Source: an uncultured Opitutaceae bacterium
GTDB taxonomy: Bacteria; Verrucomicrobiota; Verrucomicrobiia; Opitutales; Opitutaceae
Direction of reading: 5' to 3'
DNA: 64,000 nt
NCBI GenBank assembly: GCA_951813085.1
Contig: OX638348.1
Coordinates: 3,295,627-3,359,626 of the forward strand
In this document: one piece after another, positions 5,389-13,521 of the stretch
How the letters are laid out: every line of letters starts with the position of its first letter
Position numbering within the stretch: position 1 is the first letter of the stretch
The notes under the pieces: model-generated
Database searches by the model: none
Told to the model about the DNA's origin: nothing
What the model saw: only the letters and a program-made list of their open reading frames with translations
Translations under genes and position numbers: made by a program

Positions 5389-6232
5389 ATGTCCCAAGAG
5401 TCTCAGTCTACCACATCTACTTCTCCAAAGCATCAGATCGCTGCCGAGCTTGAGGAAGGATTGAATTCCTCGAATCTAGAGCTTCCGGTAATGCCACGCG
5501 TAGCGAGCAAGGTTTTCACGCTCACGAACGATCCCAACGCAGAAGTAAGCGATCTTTCTAAGCTGATCCACAGCGATCAGTCCATCGCGTCTCACGTATT
5601 GAGAATCGCCAATTCCGCGGCCTACGGCGGTGGCGATCAGATCGTATCGCTTCAACAAGCTGTAGCTCGACTAGGCATGAACCTGCTGGGCGAAATCGCT
5701 ATCGCGGTATCGGTCCAGAGCGATCTTTTCAAGGCGCCCGGATTTGAAGCTCAGATTACTCAGCTTCTTAGGCATGCGCTCGCTTCGGCCGCCTACGGAA
5801 AGGAAATTTCACGCAAGCGTCGGCGCAATGTCGAGGGTCAGTTCCTTTGCGGGCTCCTTCATTCAGTCGGGAAGCCCATCGCTGTCCAGTTGATCGCTAA
5901 GCTCACTAAGGAAAAGGACCTCACTTTGGACAAGAAAAGCGTCGCTCAGCTCGCAGGCGCTTTTCATCGAAAGATCGCCGCCAAGGTAGCGGTGGACTGG
6001 AAGCTGCCCGAGCAGCTTCCAGTCCACCATCTACTACAAGCGATACGAGTCCGCTGCGACCTACCTATCGCAGCTGCTCGCGAGCTGGGTTATCAATCCC
6101 GCCAATTTCAAAGCGAACGAACTCATTAAGAACCCTGTTTTCGGCTATCTGAATTTCTATCCAGATGACGCGGATGACCTCCTTGATAAAAAAGACGATG
6201 TTAAGGCCATGGTATCGGCGATGGAGATATGA
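5389..6232 (+). pseudogene. HDOD-domain signalling protein, frameshifted near its end
   Basis: The HDOD domain is a degenerate HD-hydrolase fold used in bacterial signalling; it usually lacks enzymatic activity. The start MSQESQS was chosen because the domain begins soon after, with ELPVMPRVASKVFTL, SDLSKLIHSDQSIASHVLRIANSAAYG and CGLLHSVGKP. After PVHH the frame goes wrong. A +1 shift at about 6029-6033 restores the family-like tail YKRYESAATYLSQLLASW and runs to a TGA at 6230-6232. That TGA overlaps the sthA start codon as ATGA, so the true gene end is 6232 and the two genes were translationally coupled. Unshifted translation stops early at 6129. Confidence 0.75.
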
Positions 6233-6277
6233 AGATAGACGAAGAATTCGACTTGATCGTTATCGGTTCGGGTCCCG
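6229..6277 (+). pseudogene. sthA: sthA 5' fragment (first 16 codons)
   Basis: ATG at 6229 overlaps the HDOD stop. The codons give MKIDEEFDLIVIGSGP, the start of a flavin-dependent pyridine nucleotide transhydrogenase, and then the homology ends abruptly inside the FAD-binding GxGxxG motif. The rest of the same gene resumes at 12112 in the same frame: CCC-G here joins to GG-GGA-CAG there, giving IGSGPGGQKAA, as in E. coli SthA (IGSGPGGEGAA). The gene is therefore split by the intervening 5.8 kb. Confidence 0.93.
6273..6277 (+). other. attL core TCCCG of the sthA-inserted element
   Basis: The pentamer TCCCG recurs at 12108-12112, and both copies occupy the same codon phase of sthA. The wider left site reads GGTTCGGGTCCCG and the right site GGTCGAATCCCG, matching at 8 of the last 10 positions. 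Both resemble a tRNA T-arm (consensus GGTTCGAATCC). Crossover anywhere inside TCCCG gives the same products, so the exact cut is undetermined. Confidence 0.8.
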
Positions 6278-6563
6278 AAAATCCGAAGTGTATATTCATT
6301 ATCAATAACTTACAAGTTTATTGTGGATATTTGTGGGCAATGATGCCTTTTACAGTCGCCTCGATCAATCCCATATGAGGCACTTAAAACTAAATCGAAT
6401 TGCGTTTCCGCGATTTTGCAAGAGGCCATCGATAGCCTGAAAACGCCTTCGAATTAGAGATATCACATTGCGATAAATCTAACCTTGAGTCGAGCGTCTC
6501 TTTCGATTCCATTTCCGTTTCAAGCTATGTATTATCGCCGCCATTGCAAGGGCCGAAACGCCT

Positions 6564-6936
6564 TCAGGAGCGCTCCCGCCGCCTTCCCGGGCGGTCCCTT
6601 CCGGCCACGCCCTTGAATTTCTCGCAGGTCCGCAGGCCGCCCAGCCCCAGCATTCCGAGCAGGATCGTCATGAGCTCCCCCGTGTCCAGTTTCGGAGCGC
6701 CGGAAAGATCGTGGCCCGAAAGAAATCCGATCCACATCAGGATTGGCTGGGCGATGTAGTTCCACCCCAGCGCGGCGCCGCAAATCCAGCCGATGGCCGG
6801 GCGCCGCCTCCCGCTCGTTGACCCGGGTTTGGGCCGCCGACGCTTCCAAGGCGCCCTCGTTCTTGTTCGGGATGAGATCCAGGACCTTCTCGACGGCGGG
6901 GCCCAGGATGGGTTTTAAAAATGACGGGATGGCCAT
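6564..6936 (-). pseudogene. Holin of the 3-TM gene-transfer-agent type, frameshifted
   Basis: Holins of this family (PF11351, named for gene transfer agent release) make membrane holes during lysis. Frame one gives MAIPSFLKPILGPAVEKVLD then runs out of homology. A one-base shift near 6785-6795 gives RRPAIGWICGAALGWNYIAQ followed by LDTGELMTILLGMLGLGGL and a TGA ending at 6564, matching the holin pattern of an RPAIGW segment, hydrophobic helices and a GELM-xxL-xGMLGLGGLRT tail. AGGAG lies 9 bases before the ATG. The start is 3 bases after the stop of the upstream small gene. Its presence points to a phage origin for this part of the element. Confidence 0.75.
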
Positions 6937-6939
6937 CGG

Positions 6940-7185
6940 TCAGGTCTCCTTGCCTTTATGGATTTTCAGTTCGGTCTCCAGCTCCTTGATCCCGATGCCG
7001 CGCCCGCCTTTGTCCGCCTTGTAGACGGTGAGTATCGAGTCTATCCGCTCTGCATTGTAGTCAACGTCCTCTATCATCACGATGAGCTTGTCGCCCTCCT
7101 CGATGTAGACCGCGCCGGGCTCGAAGGAGCCCTTCTCTGGAACGCTTTCCAGGATATGATCTAGGAAGTCTCTGTTTTTGGCCAT
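6940..7185 (-). CDS. Small hypothetical protein of the element
   Basis: 81 residues, acidic and basic mixed, predicted soluble. The segment PGAVYIEEGDKLIVMIEDV looks like strands of a compact beta domain, followed by a helix rich in Lys/Glu. It ends 3 bases before the holin start, so the two form an operon. I do not recognise a family; position suggests a phage-derived accessory gene. The frame is intact and the composition protein-like. Confidence 0.65.
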   Translation of the reverse strand: MAKNRDFLDHILESVPEKGSFEPGAVYIEEGDKLIVMIEDVDYNAERIDSILTVYKADKGGRGIGIKELETELKIHKGKET

Positions 7186-7244
7186 AGCAATTCAGTGAAT
7201 CTATCGTCGAAATCCTTCGGGAACTTAGAAAATGCGGGACTCTC

Positions 7245-7511
7245 CTAGACCATGTCCCAGTCGAATATCTCGTCTCTATCGTTTACGAACACCACGAAAA
7301 GTCTGTCAGGCGGGAAAGGAACTTTAATACCTTTGTCAAGAAATCTCGTTTTCGCAACACCGCAGTAGCATCGCCCGTCCGCCATGTTCTCCCGCTTGAG
7401 GCCGCCGAAAACGCATAGCGGTTTCTCTAGAACCTCCTTGATCATCAGCGAATCCAGATACTTGGTCCTGCTTTTCGGCTTCACCTGCAGAAGTCCCGCG
7501 ATTCCTAGCAT
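7245..7511 (-). CDS. Small hypothetical protein of the element
   Basis: 88 residues with ATG start. Visible are a basic N-terminal third, a single CYCG pair in the middle, and a C-terminus FVVFVNDRDEIFDWDMV that looks like a beta strand with an acidic end. No family recognised. It lies upstream of the 81-residue gene on the same strand, 59 bases away. Its 5' end abuts the point where the P63C homology on the other strand begins, which suggests a rearrangement joint there. Confidence 0.6.
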   Translation of the reverse strand: MLGIAGLLQVKPKSRTKYLDSLMIKEVLEKPLCVFGGLKRENMADGRCYCGVAKTRFLDKGIKVPFPPDRLFVVFVNDRDEIFDWDMV

Positions 7512-7567
7512 TTAAGAACCTGCAGCCGTTCATAACCAAGCATTTAGGTCACCTGCAGAATATCACA

Positions 7568-8233
7568 GTGAAATACAGGACTGAAAACGGGAGGTCGGCG
7601 ATCGGGATCAAGGCCGAGATCATTCCAAAAATATGCGACGTATGGCTAGACGCCGACGAAAACGGCAAACTTCGCAAAACCCAAATCGAGATAGCAGCGA
7701 AAGCGAAACTGATAATGCGAGCCCTGGCGCATGTTGGCATCACGGCACTGGTTGACGAGGCTACGGGCTACCAATACGAACGGGCCCGAAACGCCTTGGG
7801 GGAGATTCTAGAGCGCTTTATTGCCAAAGAGCTGCAACCTTGGACAAAGACATTTCCGACTGATTTCTATGAAGAAATATTTCGATTGAAGAAGTGGAAA
7901 TTTGATCCTGCCACAATGCAGGGGCCAAGGGTCATTAGCGCCTACACGATGGATATTGTCTACAAAAGACTTGCCCCTGGTATCGTCGATGAATTGAAAT
8001 CTAAATCTCCACCGGTGGCTAAGGGAAGAAGGAAGAACAAGCTTCTTCAGTGGCTTACCGGAAATGTAGGACATCCGCAACTGAGAGCCCACATTGAGGC
8101 CGTTACCGCCTTGATGAGGGTCTCAAATAGCTGGGAGCAGTTTAAGAAATTCATAGACAAGGCTTATCCAATAATTGAGGTAACCGAACTCGGAACGTCT
8201 ACCCCGATAAAGAAAAGAAAATCGGTTCGTTAA
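7568..8233 (+). CDS. P63C-domain protein, N-terminally truncated
   Basis: P63C (PF10546) proteins occur in phages and mobile elements; their function is unknown to me. Seen: ALVDEATGYQYERARNALGEIL, then FPTDFYEEIFRLKKW, YKRLAPGIVDELK, GRRKNKLLQWLTGNVGHP and LMRVSNSWEQF, the family landmarks in order. The only usable start is GTG at 7568, but homologous-looking codons (LQPFITKHLGHLQNI) continue upstream in frame to about 7514 without a start codon. This fits loss of the 5' end of a longer gene. It may therefore be a remnant rather than a functional gene. Confidence 0.75.
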   Translation: MKYRTENGRSAIGIKAEIIPKICDVWLDADENGKLRKTQIEIAAKAKLIMRALAHVGITALVDEATGYQYERARNALGEILERFIAKELQPWTKTFPTDFYEEIFRLKKWKFDPATMQGPRVISAYTMDIVYKRLAPGIVDELKSKSPPVAKGRRKNKLLQWLTGNVGHPQLRAHIEAVTALMRVSNSWEQFKKFIDKAYPIIEVTELGTSTPIKKRKSVR

Positions 8234-8287
8234 ACTCCTTATTGATGGGGGCGGCAGAGGCTGGCCGGACTCTACAATCGTGGCCCA

Positions 8288-8315
8288 TGGGGTTTGATTC
8301 CCCACACCTCCACCA
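8288..8315 (+). other. tRNA/tmRNA-like T-arm and acceptor 3' half ending in CCA
   Basis: Bases 8288-8304 form a perfect 5-bp T-stem (TGGGG/CCCCA) around a 7-base loop TTTGATT. They are followed by a 7-base acceptor strand CACCTCC, a discriminator A and an encoded CCA (8313-8315). The GGGGGCG at 8247-8253 could pair with the acceptor strand at 6 of 7 positions, including a G3-U70 wobble as in tmRNA and tRNA-Ala. A D-arm-like stem AGAG/CTCT (8256-8259, 8270-8273) is also possible. Only 14 bases remain for an anticodon arm, too few for a tRNA. It is best read as an element-borne 3' fragment of a tRNA or tmRNA gene, such as an old attachment site. Confidence 0.6.
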
Positions 8316-8500
8316 ATTTCAAAAATGACATAGTTCCGGATTTCATCAATTCAAATTAGGACACTACCCGACTATTCCAAGCCTTGACTAGTCTGATAGA
8401 ATCGCGGATGGATACATCTGTTCCCGTTCCTTATGTCCAAATCTGAACCTATTTTAGCAGCTTTCCTGTTTTCAGACAGTACAATTGTAGAGGCGCGATC

Positions 8501-9382
8501 ATGAGTGCGGCTACGGCTGTAGCCGATTTTCCCGTTTCCCGGATCCCGGTCGTCAATGTCGCGACCGTTCCGCAGCGCAGTCCCTTGCGCTATCCCGGTG
8601 GCAAGACGTGGTTGATCCCGCACATCAGAGAGTGGTTGCGTCATGCGGGCGCGCGGCTCCTGATCGAGCCGTTTGCGGGGGGCGGCATCGCGACCTTGAC
8701 GGCGATTGCGGAAAACCTTGTTGGTGAGGCCGTGATGCTGGAAATTGACAGGGACGTTGCCGCGTTTTGGCGGGGCGCTTTTGAATCAGGGACAACGCTG
8801 GCTGAACGGGTTAGGCAATTCGAGCCAACCCTGGAAAGCCTGAACAAGCTGTTGAACGAACCGCCTAGATCCCTTGAAGAGCACGCCTTTCGCACTCTCG
8901 TTTTGAACCGTACCCGGCGGGGCGGGATTTTGGCTCCGGGCGCATCGTTTAGCCGCCAGGGCGAGAATGGGCGCGGCATCCTGTCGCGCTGGTATCCTGA
9001 TACGCTTGCCGAGCGTCTGTTGGCCTTGCAGAACTGCAATGATCGCATCACTTTCCTCGAAGGCGACGGGGTAAAGCTGTTGCCGTCTCTATTGCGCGGC
9101 TGGGGCCGCCAGGCAGCGGTGTTTCTAGATCCCCCATATACCGGTGACGGCGGCAAGCGCGCCGGGTCTCGGCTCTATGCGCATTCGGAAGTTGACCACG
9201 CAAGATTGTTCGCGCTGCTTGCCAAGTATCGTCCTTGCTTCCTAATGACGTATGACGCATCTCCCCAAATTATTGATCTGGTAAGGAAGCACGACTTCGA
9301 CGCGGTTTTGCTATCCATGAAGAACACCCATCACAACCAAATGCCGGAACTGGTGATTACTTCCAGCCCGCTGTTTGCATGA
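8501..9382 (+). CDS. D12-class (Dam-like) N6-adenine DNA methyltransferase
   Basis: The modification half of a restriction-modification pair. Landmarks in D12-class order: RYPGGK (30-35), SAM-binding EPFAGGG (56-62), an acidic residue after the next strand (EID, 81-83), and catalytic DPPY (210-213). Length 293 is typical for the class, which methylates adenine N6. AGAGG lies 9-10 bases before the ATG, and a TACAAT box is visible about 20 bases upstream. Its stop overlaps the start of the nuclease gene as ATGA, so the two are cotranslated, methylase first, as is common for type II systems. It looks more GC-rich than the flanking phage-like genes, which suggests separate acquisition. Confidence 0.92.
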   Translation: MSAATAVADFPVSRIPVVNVATVPQRSPLRYPGGKTWLIPHIREWLRHAGARLLIEPFAGGGIATLTAIAENLVGEAVMLEIDRDVAAFWRGAFESGTTLAERVRQFEPTLESLNKLLNEPPRSLEEHAFRTLVLNRTRRGGILAPGASFSRQGENGRGILSRWYPDTLAERLLALQNCNDRITFLEGDGVKLLPSLLRGWGRQAAVFLDPPYTGDGGKRAGSRLYAHSEVDHARLFALLAKYRPCFLMTYDASPQIIDLVRKHDFDAVLLSMKNTHHNQMPELVITSSPLFA

Positions 9383-10206
9383 GCCGGTACGGAATCGCTG
9401 AGTGGTTCGGCCATCCATTAACAACGCTTGCGCCGCCTCAAAGGCAGGCTTTCGCCCGAGCCGCATTGAAACAGACCGCCCCGCCGCCCTGTCCTTTCCA
9501 GTCGGGAAACCCGCCTTGCAGCAAGAAAGGCGGCGTGTGTTCGATCCAATCCAGGGAGAACGACCCGGTTATCACCTGTCCGCGGCGATTCGAGGAGGGA
9601 AATCTGATTCCACTGTGGCTCGCTGAGATTGTTGGCTTTCAAGATGTGTATGTCGCGCCCGAAGTACCATTTATGCGATCACCGTCAACCGGGCGTGCCG
9701 CAGGGCGAATCGATCTAGTAGTAGCCGGGAATAACCAGGCGTCGGACTGGTACGGGTTGGAGATTCAGGCTGTTTATTTCTCTGGCAAAGGCATGGAGGC
9801 CGATTTCCGAATGCTGTTGGAGAGTGAAGAAAGGGACCCGCCTTCGCCATCTGCGCCGCGCCGTCCTGACTGGCGGTCTTCAAGCGCAAAAAGGCTCATG
9901 CCGCAACTTCAAGTTAAGGGGCCGACCTTGCGACGATGGGGCACCAAACTCGCCGTTTCTGTCGATTATCCGTTCTTTGAAGCGATTGGTGGTCCGTCCG
10001 GCAACCCATCTCAGGACCTTGATGACGGCGACATTGTTTGGCTTGTGCCGCGCATGGGTGCAGATCGTCGTTTGAAGCGGGGCCATTGGGAGGTCCTGTC
10101 GCTTGAAGCATCCAGCGACAAGCTCTTGGCGGCGGACACCATCAAGCGCGGAGAATTCGAACAAAACTTGCGAGACAAACTTGAGAAACTGGGGAGCCGA
10201 CTATGA
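9379..10206 (+). CDS. NotI-family type II restriction endonuclease
   Basis: The restriction half of the pair. It shows two hallmarks of the NotI family (PF12183): four cysteines near the N-terminus (38, 47, 54, 67, with ITCPRRF around the last), as in the NotI iron-binding site, and a PD-(D/E)xK-type active site in its Gln variant, GRID at D112 followed by LEIQ at E128 and Q130. NotI itself uses Asp-Glu-Gln. Length 275. Translational coupling to the adenine methylase implies they share a target. That target should contain an adenine, unlike the all-GC NotI site, so the specificity is probably different. The frame is intact and likely functional. Confidence 0.85.
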   Translation: MSRYGIAEWFGHPLTTLAPPQRQAFARAALKQTAPPPCPFQSGNPPCSKKGGVCSIQSRENDPVITCPRRFEEGNLIPLWLAEIVGFQDVYVAPEVPFMRSPSTGRAAGRIDLVVAGNNQASDWYGLEIQAVYFSGKGMEADFRMLLESEERDPPSPSAPRRPDWRSSSAKRLMPQLQVKGPTLRRWGTKLAVSVDYPFFEAIGGPSGNPSQDLDDGDIVWLVPRMGADRRLKRGHWEVLSLEASSDKLLAADTIKRGEFEQNLRDKLEKLGSRL

Positions 10207-10261
10207 CACACCCCTACAATATCGGCTGTAATCGGGGTCATCAAGTAAGGCGGCATCACAA

Positions 10262-10402
10262 ATGCGATACAATTCACTTGTTCAAATGTTGGAAGTTTTC
10301 CGTGACGAACAATCCTGTATCAACCACTTGGAAAAACTGCGATGGGGTGCAGGGATAGTGTGCGCCTGTTGTGGTAGTACGCGGAAGATATACAAAAATT
10401 AG
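10262..10402 (+). pseudogene. IS1595-family transposase, N-terminal fragment
   Basis: 46 codons: a helix SLVQMLEVFRDEQSCINHLE, then KLRWGAGIVCACCGSTRK ending at TAG. The spacing F-x(3)-E-x-C...LRW-x-x-G-x-x-C-x-x-CG is that of the N-terminal zinc-ribbon region of IS1595-family transposases. The DDE catalytic domain is absent, so only a scrap of the insertion sequence remains. It starts 56 bases after the nuclease gene and marks an old insertion at the cargo edge. Confidence 0.7.
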
Positions 10403-10545
10403 GGAATGATATACTTAATAACCCCAATTATACCGGACGTTTTAGGGGTGCAAGGTCATACAATGCAACTGGAGTCAACTCATGGAAACGCCTCCCCCCT
10501 TGCGGGGCTTTCTACCCCTTTTTTCTATACCTTCTTGCCTGTTTT

Positions 10546-10569
10546 CCGGTTTTCGGCGTCGAAAACCGG
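10546..10569. repeat. Perfect 10-bp inverted repeat with 4-base loop
   Basis: CCGGTTTTCG, a GCGT loop, then CGAAAACCGG. It lies in the 293-base gene-free stretch 10403-10695 between the IS fragment and the integrase. No T-run follows on either strand, so it is not a standard terminator. Just upstream (about 10493-10530) is a C/G-rich hairpin followed by T-rich sequence that could be a weak terminator. Otherwise this gap shows nothing. Confidence 0.6.
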
Positions 10570-10695
10570 CGTTGACAGTCAGGCGTTTACGGTTGCAAGA
10601 TGTTGATTGTGAAAGGGTAGCGAATCTCAGTTAATTTCTGAAGTCCCTATCCTCTGTCTACGTAGAAACACCTACGACATACTGCGGCTTATACT

Positions 10696-11948
10696 TCAAT
10701 ACAAACCCGATATTTTATCGGAACTTCCTAAACCTCGCCCCGACTCGCGCTCCCGAAGCACTTCAGTCGATTGCGCATGGCTCATCAAAGTAGACGTCAA
10801 CGCCAAGTCCCCGAACGCCGCCACATGATTGGAGGCGAACGTGTGCCGCGCCCAATTCCTCGGAGGCGACTTCGCGAAGATCCCCTTCTCCGGCCGCTCG
10901 TCCGCCGCCGCGATCTTCAATCCCGCCACCTTCAGAGCGGCGCTCTTCTCATGCATCCAAGCCGTCTTGCGACGGTCGATCCAGTCCTTCCGATGCTCCG
11001 GGCTCTTCGGCTTCTAGCACGCCGGAGCGAAATCCTCCGGCCCCGCCCTCTCGATCCACTTCCAGAGATTCGTCGGCAAGCCCTCGATCAGCTGCCGCCG
11101 CCCCGCCTTCGCCTTCCAGGCCGGAGTCTCTATCCCCGGGAGATCGAACTTGAGGTCCCGCCACTCGAGCCGAGAGACCGCGCTGGCGCGCATCCCCGCG
11201 AACATCTCCAAAGCCAGCTTAGCGCATCGCCCCGGGAATCGCAGGTTCGCCCGCAGCAGGATCCTCCCGTCCTCAAGCGAAAGAAACTCGATGTCCGCCC
11301 GCTTCCTCCTCGGAGGCTTCAGCCTGGCGAACGGATGCCGGTCGATGCGCCCCTCGCAGCGCCCACGAAAACGCCACATTGACTCGCTTGTACTGATTCC
11401 GCTTCGTGTCCTGCGCGTACGGCAAATCGTCCACCCACGCCGAAAACCGCCCCGCCTCGCGAAAAAGCCCCGCCGCCGTCAAATTCCCGAAAGCCCGATT
11501 GAACCGCTTGAAGTGCGATCCGTATTGATTCGCCTCGAAATTCGCGTCCCGGCTTCCGATGATCCAGAAAGCCCGCCAAGATGGCCGACACCGGCTCCTG
11601 CCGAGTCCCCAAAGCCGCCCCCGAATCCGTATTCCGCATCCAAAAGCTAGCGACTTCCACCGGATCCGCCCCGCCGATCATCGCCTCCGCGATCTCCCAT
11701 CGCTTCCGCCTGGCCGGATCCAGAGACTTCGCGACCTTCCCCTCCGCGACCCGCGTCGCGTGGATGTCCGCCGCCCATTTTTCACGGAGCTCGATCTCCG
11801 CGAAACGCCGCCTCGCGGCGACCGACTTCGACCGCCCGTCGCTTCGCGCCTTGGGCGTGTAGTAGTATGCTCCATACGGCGACTTGGCGGACCCTGTCGA
11901 GCGAAAGAAAATCCCTTCGTATCCAGATTCAACCGCATCGCTAGCCAC
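10696..11948 (-). pseudogene. Tyrosine-type integrase of the element, multiply frameshifted
   Basis: Pieces of one tyrosine recombinase occur in successive frames. From 11948 comes an N-terminal arm-binding part (GIFFRSTG...YGAYYYTPKA). Near 11480-11380 comes core-binding sequence (GLFREAGRFSAWVDDLPYAQ). From 11379 comes box I with the catalytic Arg (MFAGMRASAVSRLEWRDL). From 10956 to 10696 comes box II (RNWARHTFASNHVAAFGD) and LMSHAQSTEVLRE, where the expected tyrosine is missing. At least three frame changes are needed. It starts at a GTG about 160 bases from the right attachment core, the usual place for an integrase. Inactive as written. Confidence 0.85.
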
Positions 11949-12107
11949 CGCCCGAAAATTGCGGGTCGTTGTGGGTCAAGCAAGCTTTTTTGAGGGTTTT
12001 AGAGTGTTAAAAACGCCCCTCTCTCAGCCCTATATAAATTTATAAGTTGCTTATATTAAGGTACTTGCTAGACTTTTCCCTCGAAATTCCCCCCTTAAAT
12101 GGTCGAA

Positions 12108-12112
12108 TCCCG
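12108..12112 (+). other. attR core TCCCG
   Basis: Right boundary of the element. The local sequence GGTCGAATCCCGG is closer than the left site to the tRNA T-arm consensus GGTTCGAATCC; its left part should derive from the element's own attP. From 12112 onward the sthA frame resumes. The 12046-12111 stretch is open in the sthA frame but has no start codon, so no fused start is supplied by the element. Confidence 0.8.
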
Positions 12113-13521
12113 GGGGACAGAAAGCCGCAATCCAAGGAGCGAACGCAGGACTCAAAGTAGCTCTAATTGAACGAGAGCGAAAAGTAGGTGGCACCTGCGT
12201 ACATCACGGCACTATCCCAAGCAAAACTCTCAGAGAAGCCGCGCTCACCATTACCACCTTGCGCAGAAATGCGGACGTGTTCGACTTCAAGCTGAAGGAC
12301 AATATGGAGGTATCCACCTTGATGAGGCGGCTCGATTCCGTCCTCGGATCATACACGGACTTCATCGCCGAATATCTCAACTCTCAAGGGATTTCCTACT
12401 TTCATGGCCGCGCGTCGATCGAAGACGCCAACACTGTCTCCCTAACGACACTCAAGGGATCCGCTAGCTACCTGAAAACGAAATTCATGGTGATCGCGAC
12501 CGGGTCCCGACCCAGGACGCCTCCGGACATCACCGTCGATCACGAGAACATTCTCGATAGCGACTCCATCCTGAGCATGATTTATCTTCCGCGATCCCTA
12601 ACCGTCGTCGGCGGTGGCGTGATCGCATCCGAGTACGCCTCCATATTCTCCTTGCTAGGCGTGAAGGTCACCATGTTCGATCGCACACCAAGGCCCCTAA
12701 TGTTCATGGAGCCCGAGTGTACCGAGAAATTCCTGCACCATTTCACGACCAATGGGGGTGAATATATTGGAGACGTTCAGTATGAAAGCGTCGAATGGGA
12801 CTCTGTTTCCCAAGTGATCACCAAACTCAGCGACGGCACCGAAATTTCTAGCGACAAGATGCTGGTGGCCCAAGGTCGGATCGCCAATACTGATCGGATC
12901 GGTCTCGAAACCCTTGGAATACAGCTTGGACGAAACGGAACGATTCCAGTCAATGAGAACTACGAGACAGCTGTCGAAGGCGTCTATGCAGTCGGGGACG
13001 TAATTGATCCCCCATCCCTTGCTTCGGTATCGATGGAGCAAGGACGCCGGGCGATTTGCCATGCCCTAGGGACCGATCTAGGGAGCAAGTTCGAGCTCGT
13101 TCCTATTGGTATTTACGCGGTTCCAGAGCTTTCCAGCGTTGGCTTGTCAGAAGAGCAAGCCAGGGAAAAGTACGGAGACGATATCATTGTCGGCAGGGCT
13201 AGTTTCGACGAAGTCGCTCGCGGACAGATCGCCGGAATCAAGGATGGTCTCCTAACAATGATCGTTGAATCGAAAACGCTGAAAATCGTTGGTGTTCACA
13301 TCGTCGCCGAAGGGGCGACAGATTTGATCCACGTCGGGGAGATGGCGATTCTCAACAACAACGATGTTCGGGTATTTCTCGAGAATGTATTGAATTTTCC
13401 AACACTTGGAGAAGCCTATCGAATCGCTGCGTTGAATATCGTTACAAAGCATGCGGAGCGAGCGGCGAAGAAGCCCGAGTCGCGTATCCAGAATTTGATC
13501 GAGCAAGCCGAACTGAACTAA
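12112..13521 (+). pseudogene. sthA: sthA 3' part: soluble pyridine nucleotide transhydrogenase
   Basis: SthA is a flavoprotein that passes hydride from NADPH to NAD+, balancing the two pools. Seen: GGTCVHHGTIPSKTLREA (as in SthA, with only one of the two disulfide cysteines of its relatives), VIATGSRPRTP, DSDSILSM, the NAD-binding VVGGGVIASEYASIF, VYAVGDVIDPPSLAS and the dimerisation domain ending at 13521. Joined to 6229-6276 it would be about 485 residues (E. coli 466). As it stands the first in-frame ATG is 12259, which would leave out the FAD-binding Rossmann motif and the GGTC segment, so any product should be inactive. Confidence 0.92.

What the first reader, a model, noticed from the sequence alone, without database searches (positions are those of the whole stretch)
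8501..10206. NotI-family nuclease coupled to a D12 (adenine-type) methyltransferase
NotI itself is protected by a cytosine methylase and cuts an all-GC site. Here the nuclease (Cys4 motif, D112/E128/Q130) overlaps by 4 bases a Dam-like methylase whose class modifies adenine. A working pair must therefore recognise an adenine-containing site, so the specificity is likely new. The classic NotI sequence GCGGCCGC occurs in the window (about 47175), which also argues that this enzyme does not target it or that the site is otherwise tolerated.
Basis: partly seen in the sequence, partly recalled or inferred. Interest (0 to 1): 0.72.

Follow-up and report, generated by a model that had tools for sequence, protein, structure and literature searches.

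The report
NotI-type restriction system, probably cytosine-protected
A bacterial DNA-cutting enzyme of the NotI family sits beside a protective DNA-methylating enzyme that is labelled 'adenine-type', but whose closest tested relative methylates cytosine in GGCC, the core of the NotI site, so the expected adenine-containing target is probably wrong; the pairing itself is widespread.

Summary
Window 8501-9382 encodes a D12-type DNA methyltransferase, and 9379-10206 a NotI-family nuclease overlapping it by 4 bp. The pair is intact.

The interpretation mostly fails. (1) 'D12' does not prove adenine methylation. By sequence profile and by predicted structure, the closest solved relative of this methyltransferase is M.CbeI (7m6b), annotated D12/DPPY but shown experimentally to make N4-methylcytosine at GGCC. 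GGCC is the core of GCGGCCGC. (2) The pairing is not special: 96 of 106 distinct NotI-family nucleases collected have a D12 neighbour and 10 a C5-cytosine methyltransferase. Partner class switched at least four times, once between 84%-identical nucleases. (3) Chromosomal NotI sites (131 in this genome) say nothing about specificity, because a working methyltransferase would protect them.

Best reading: a Type IIP restriction-modification system carried as cargo on a decayed integrative/prophage element inside a transhydrogenase gene. It more likely protects a GC-rich, GGCC-core site by m4C than an A-containing site by m6A. Neither modification nor site was measured. A 5,087-bp block carrying the pair occurs twice in the genome with one mismatch.

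Verdict: new member of a known kind, moderately interesting because it gives a clean test of D12 = adenine.

The parts
8501..9382 (+). alpha-class (D12, DPPY) amino-methyltransferase, 293 aa; closest solved relative M.CbeI (m4C, GGCC)
   Evidence: PF02086; PDB 7m6b E 9.9e-12, profile 65 bits vs 24-26 for Dam/DpnM; AlphaFold2 pLDDT 89.0, VIA Z 25.3 to 7m6b vs 23.2 to Dam
9379..10206 (+). NotI-family restriction endonuclease, 275 aa, Cys4 metal site and D-ExQ active site; starts inside the stop of the methyltransferase (ATGA)
   Evidence: PF12183 137 bits; AlphaFold2 pLDDT 95.8; NotI 3c25 Z 18.2 over 259 residues
6491..11577 (.). 5,087-bp block carrying the pair, present twice in the genome with one mismatch (at 10665)
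6273..12112 (.). integrated element interrupting a soluble pyridine-nucleotide transhydrogenase (sthA-like) gene in its GSGP-GGQKAA motif; TCCCG present at both junctions (boundaries inferred)
   Evidence: frames on both sides: MKIDEEFDLIVIGSGP from 6229 and PGGQKAAIQGANAGLKVALIERERKVGGTC from 12109; the 3' part has no close second copy in the genome
10696..11948 (-). degraded tyrosine recombinase/integrase, broken by frameshifts and a stop
   Evidence: weak PHROG integrase match for the 11017-11379 frame; successive frames and stop seen
7568..8233 (+). P63C-domain phage protein (antirepressor-like), probably missing its N-terminal part
   Evidence: PF10546 E 6.5e-30; phrog_2384 matched from position 123 of 338

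Best explanation
This is a two-gene Type IIP restriction-modification system. The NotI-like nuclease, probably a homodimer with a structural metal in a Cys4 site and a PD-(D/E)xQ active site, cuts unmodified DNA at a palindrome. The overlapping upstream alpha-class methyltransferase protects the host's own sites. The methyltransferase most likely belongs with M.CbeI-type enzymes and makes N4-methylcytosine in a GC-rich site with a GGCC core, as in NotI's GCGGCCGC, rather than N6-methyladenine. The pair travels as cargo of mobile elements; here it is the intact part of a decayed integrative/prophage element and exists in two genomic copies. Shown here: gene identities, folds, conserved catalytic residues, recurrence of the pair, partner exchange, duplication. 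Inferred: activity, metal, dimer, m4C, the GGCC core.
For: Closest solved relative is M.CbeI by single sequence (E 9.9e-12; the only other match under E=1 is an unrelated protein at 0.54), by family profile (65.1 bits over the full length vs 26.5 DpnM and 24.2 Dam) and by predicted structure (Foldseek top hit; Z 25.3 at 25% identity vs 23.2 at 18% for Dam). 91 of 94 NotI-linked D12 proteins score better against M.CbeI than against three Dam-family proteins. A tree puts M.CbeI on the NotI-linked side of the branch that cuts off the Dam family (support 90), and they share RYPGGK, LY and TYD motifs where Dam has KWAGGK and SN. M.CbeI is proven m4C at GGCC despite its D12/DPPY annotation (PMC3425538; PMC8616854). 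Relatives of these nucleases use a C5-cytosine methyltransferase, once between nucleases 84% identical (L009 vs L010), so that site must hold a methylatable cytosine. The branch nearest bona fide NotI is C5-linked.
Against: Identity to M.CbeI is only about 25%, and phage and actinobacterial alpha-class proteins of unknown chemistry lie between them. Most characterised D12 enzymes are m6A (general knowledge). A C5 partner shows a C in the site but does not exclude an A. The window nuclease is only about 41% identical to the plasmid nucleases of the partner swap, so it may recognise another site. Word counts in 800 kb of this genome are not diagnostic (GGCC observed/expected 0.82, but other palindromes are equally low).
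Confidence: 0.55

Rival explanations
1. The methyltransferase is a true N6-adenine enzyme and the nuclease recognises an adenine-containing palindrome, so this branch of the NotI family has left the all-GC site.
For: PF02086 and DPPY; database annotations call the homologues 'DNA adenine methylase'; the branch is far from bona fide NotI in sequence (no NotI match by single-sequence search; E 0.025 by profile).
Against: Nearest characterised relative is m4C/GGCC, not Dam; the Dam subfamily model scores 28.7 bits against a cut-off of 114.85; homologous nucleases are protected by C5 enzymes.
Confidence: 0.33
2. The pair is decaying cargo of a dead prophage element: both frames are open but one or both proteins are no longer expressed or active.
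For: The surrounding integrase, holin-like and P63C genes are broken or truncated; no sigma-70-like promoter match upstream, a weak test in this phylum; a relative carries a broken copy of the pair (L073/L106).
Against: Both frames are full length with all invariant residues, in two copies differing by one base outside the two genes; a live nuclease needs a live methyltransferase, so joint intactness argues for function.
Confidence: 0.12

Closest known systems
NotI restriction endonuclease (PDB 3bvq/3c25, PF12183)
   Same: Fold over nearly the whole chain, N-terminal Cys4 motif, D...ExQ active site
   Different: About 17% identity in the structural alignment; shorter (275 vs 383 aa); the branch nearest to NotI in sequence is C5-linked, this one D12-linked
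M.CbeI, alpha-class N4-cytosine methyltransferase, GGCC (PDB 7m6b; PMC3425538)
   Same: Best sequence and structure match; shared RYPGGK, DPPY, LY and TYD motifs
   Different: About 25% identity; this enzyme has a longer target-recognition segment and is paired with a NotI-family nuclease; chemistry and site unmeasured
NotI-family plus D12 pairs on plasmids pEST4011, pIJB1, Aeromonas and Thermus plasmids
   Same: Same two families side by side
   Different: Order and spacing vary: nuclease first there, methyltransferase first with a 4-bp overlap here
Dam family D12 m6A methyltransferases (E. coli Dam, DpnM, T4 Dam)
   Same: Same fold and DPPY motif
   Different: Lower sequence similarity, KWAGGK and SN motifs instead of RYPGGK and TYD

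Membership tests
NotI endonuclease family (PF12183) | Match over the curated cut-off | tested here: met
   137.3 bits vs 22; all 44 aligned relatives match PF12183
NotI endonuclease family (PF12183) | Cys4 metal site and D...ExQ active-site residues | tested here: met
   C38, C47, C54, C67 at least 90% conserved; D112, E128, Q130 invariant
NotI endonuclease family (PF12183) | NotI fold | tested here: met
   Z 18.2, rmsd 4.4, 259 residues to 3c25
NotI endonuclease family (PF12183) | Cleavage at GCGGCCGC | not testable with these tools
   needs purified enzyme
M.CbeI-type alpha-class m4C methyltransferase | Closest to M.CbeI among enzymes of known chemistry | tested here: met
M.CbeI-type alpha-class m4C methyltransferase | N4-cytosine product at GGCC | not testable with these tools
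   needs methylation calling or enzyme assay
Dam-type m6A methyltransferase | Match to the Dam subfamily model over cut-off | tested here: not met
   TIGR00571 28.7 bits vs 114.85
D12 (PF02086) superfamily | Pfam match and DPPY | tested here: met
   39 bits vs 22; DPPY invariant in 37 relatives
Type II restriction-modification system | Adjacent nuclease and methyltransferase genes that co-occur across genomes | tested here: met
   all 106 distinct nucleases tallied have a D12 or C5 neighbour
Type II restriction-modification system | Restriction of unmethylated DNA blocked by the cognate methylation | not testable with these tools
   needs an experiment

The most novel reading that the evidence does not exclude
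A large, horizontally spread branch of the NotI family is protected by an alpha-class ('D12, adenine-specific') methyltransferase that really makes N4-methylcytosine in a GGCC-core site, and during evolution swapped this enzyme for a C5-cytosine methyltransferase several times while the nuclease kept its site. Database calls of m6A for many CbeI-like proteins would then be wrong.
Probability: 0.42. Interest if true: 0.6.

Novelty: new member of a known kind. Interest (0 to 1): 0.42.

Why it matters
The case turns a routine annotation rule (D12 means adenine) into a testable question with a sharp prediction: m4C in a GGCC-core site versus m6A in an A-containing site. If m4C is right, it corrects the predicted chemistry of many 'DNA adenine methylases' and shows methyltransferase classes being exchanged under one nuclease lineage. 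If m6A is right, this branch of the NotI family recognises a new, A-containing, possibly useful rare site. Either result is obtainable from long-read kinetics or one cloning experiment.

Tried and rejected
Novelty of the pairing: rejected after the survey. 'The NotI site in the window argues against that specificity': rejected; one site where about three are expected, 131 in the genome, and self-methylation protects them. Avoidance of GGCC, CGGCCG or GCGGCCGC in 800 kb of the genome: no diagnostic signal. Reading the site from the C5 partners: nearest solved C5 enzymes are DNMT1, then HaeIII and HhaI, with no close template of known site; their recognition region is highly conserved, but that gives no sequence. 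Finding bona fide NotI relatives in plasmids and phages with the N-terminal fragment: none. PD-Lambda-5: the methyltransferase matches the PADLOC B model but the nuclease matches no PADLOC model, so the system is not that. Literature on NotI-D12 pairs or M.NotI: nothing useful held.

Full report
OBSERVATION. Two plus-strand genes are present as described: a D12-type methyltransferase (8501-9382, 293 aa) and a NotI-family nuclease (9379-10206, 275 aa), overlapping by ATGA. Pfam supports both over their cut-offs (39 vs 22 bits; 137.3 vs 22 bits). The nuclease is not called by single-sequence search of the PDB and only weakly by profile (NotI 3bvq, E 0.025, Cys4 region), but its predicted structure (mean pLDDT 95.8) matches NotI over 259 residues at Z 18.2, next best Z 8.5. 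D112, E128 and Q130 are invariant, and the four cysteines at least 90% conserved, among 44 relatives. It is a real but divergent NotI-family protein.

THE ADENINE INFERENCE. The only confident PDB sequence match of the methyltransferase is 7m6b, E 9.9e-12. 7m6b is M.CbeI of Caldicellulosiruptor bescii (PMC8616854, section 2.6). M.CbeI was annotated as a D12 N6-adenine enzyme and has DPPY, yet the purified enzyme makes N4-methylcytosine in GGCC and protects against CbeI, a HaeIII isoschizomer; the same paper cites DmtB of Anabaena, 57% identical, also m4C in GGCC (PMC3425538). A family profile of 37 NotI-linked D12 proteins scores M.CbeI at 65.1 bits over the full length, DpnM at 26.5 and Dam at 24.2. 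The predicted structure (mean pLDDT 89.0) ranks M.CbeI first by Foldseek and by VIA-align: Z 25.3 and 25% identity, against 23.2 and 18% for Dam and 21.7 for DpnM. Of 94 NotI-linked D12 proteins, 91 score best against M.CbeI when compared with M.CbeI and three Dam-family proteins. In a tree, the Dam family is cut off from M.CbeI, its cyanobacterial homologue, phage and actinobacterial relatives and all NotI-linked proteins (support 90). Local motifs agree (RYPGGK, LY and TYD against KWAGGK and SN in Dam). The NCBIfam Dam model is missed (28.7 bits against 114.85). These results remove the warrant for 'D12, therefore adenine'. They do not prove m4C: identity to M.CbeI is about 25%, and the chemistry of the intervening proteins is unknown.

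PARTNERS ACROSS THE FAMILY. A scan of genome contigs found 499 relatives of the nuclease; the best 80 were fetched, so the sample leans towards close relatives. More came from plasmids, viral contigs and 384 genomes of the same class, of which 23 have the family. Of 106 distinct nucleases of at least 230 aa, 96 have a D12 neighbour and 10 a C5 neighbour. In 68 of the 96 the methyltransferase comes first on the same strand, and 42 of these show the same 4-bp overlap. The finished nuclease tree needs five changes of partner label, at least four forced by well-supported branches (bootstrap rough). The sharpest case is plasmid pBN5 (C5 partner, Vsr gene alongside) against the Aeromonas and pEST4011 plasmids (D12 partner): nucleases 84% identical. 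Such similar nucleases very probably share a site, which must contain a methylatable cytosine. The branch nearest to bona fide NotI (L114, L115; E 2e-5 to 3e-5) is C5-linked. M.EagI, for CGGCCG, is cited as C5 on the innermost cytosine (PMC4722110). A GC-only, GGCC-core site with interchangeable cytosine chemistries fits all of this without requiring a new site; an A-containing site remains possible.

THE NOTI-SITE ARGUMENT. GCGGCCGC occurs once in the window (2.9 expected) and 131 times in the genome, against 162 for the reversed word. Host sites are expected to be methylated in a working system, so their presence is uninformative. An 800-kb sample shows mild depletion of GGCC (0.82) but similar depletion of other palindromes, and CGGCCG and GCGGCCGC close to expectation.

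CONTEXT. The pair lies in an element that interrupts a transhydrogenase gene exactly in its dinucleotide-binding motif (left part ...LIVIGSGP, right part PGGQKAA...); TCCCG at both junctions suggests site-specific integration (inferred). The element's integrase is broken, a P63C antirepressor-like gene appears truncated and a holin-like reading is frameshifted (by eye), so the element looks dead while the pair is intact. A 5,087-bp block (window 6491-11577) recurs at about 4.54 Mb with a single mismatch outside both genes; the second copy lacks the element's ends. The window nuclease falls in a fully supported clade of 63, all D12-linked, spread over about 11 phyla. Several members carry sponge-symbiont names, or bin prefixes matching the sponge species of PMC8163846, a study that reports restriction-modification genes enriched and laterally transferred among sponge symbionts. 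This suggests horizontal spread in sponge communities; the provenance of most bins was not checked.

JUDGEMENT. An ordinary kind of system (Type II restriction-modification, NotI family) with an unsettled and interesting modification chemistry. Most likely m4C at a GGCC-core site (0.55), next m6A at an A-containing site (0.33), or inactive cargo (0.12).

Noticed in passing
6491-11577; second copy G000:C1 about 4542805-4547891, minus strand: 5,087-bp block with the restriction-modification pair is duplicated in the genome with one mismatch; the second copy lacks the integrase start and element ends and lies near a HerA-like ATPase and other mobile or defence-like genes.
   Followed up: partly
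6229-6277 and 12109-13521: A soluble transhydrogenase (sthA-like) gene is split by the element exactly in its GSGPGG nucleotide-binding motif; no other close copy of the 3' part in the genome.
   Followed up: partly
L015-L080, L088, L093: The nearest pairs (about 50-73% identical nucleases) form one clade across about 11 phyla, many from MAGs with sponge-symbiont names or sponge-study prefixes (RHO, CAR, IRC, COS, APA), suggesting transfer within sponge microbiomes.
   Followed up: partly
L009 2509-2913: On plasmid pBN5 the C5-linked NotI-family system is flanked by a very short patch repair (Vsr) gene, as expected for a 5-methylcytosine system.
   Followed up: no
L073 / L106: A relative of the same class (OX638380) carries a broken copy of the same pair, with both genes interrupted.
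   Followed up: no
6535-7185, minus strand: Frameshifted holin-like reading (GWNYIAQPILMWIGFLSG...) beside small phage-like ORFs, indicating a prophage remnant; judged by eye, no Pfam or PHROG match.
   Followed up: no
L138 2477-3361; L139 2474-3415: D12 proteins inside the NotI-linked methyltransferase clade but without a NotI gene beside them on Bdellovibrio and Deinococcus plasmids: orphans or differently paired.
   Followed up: partly
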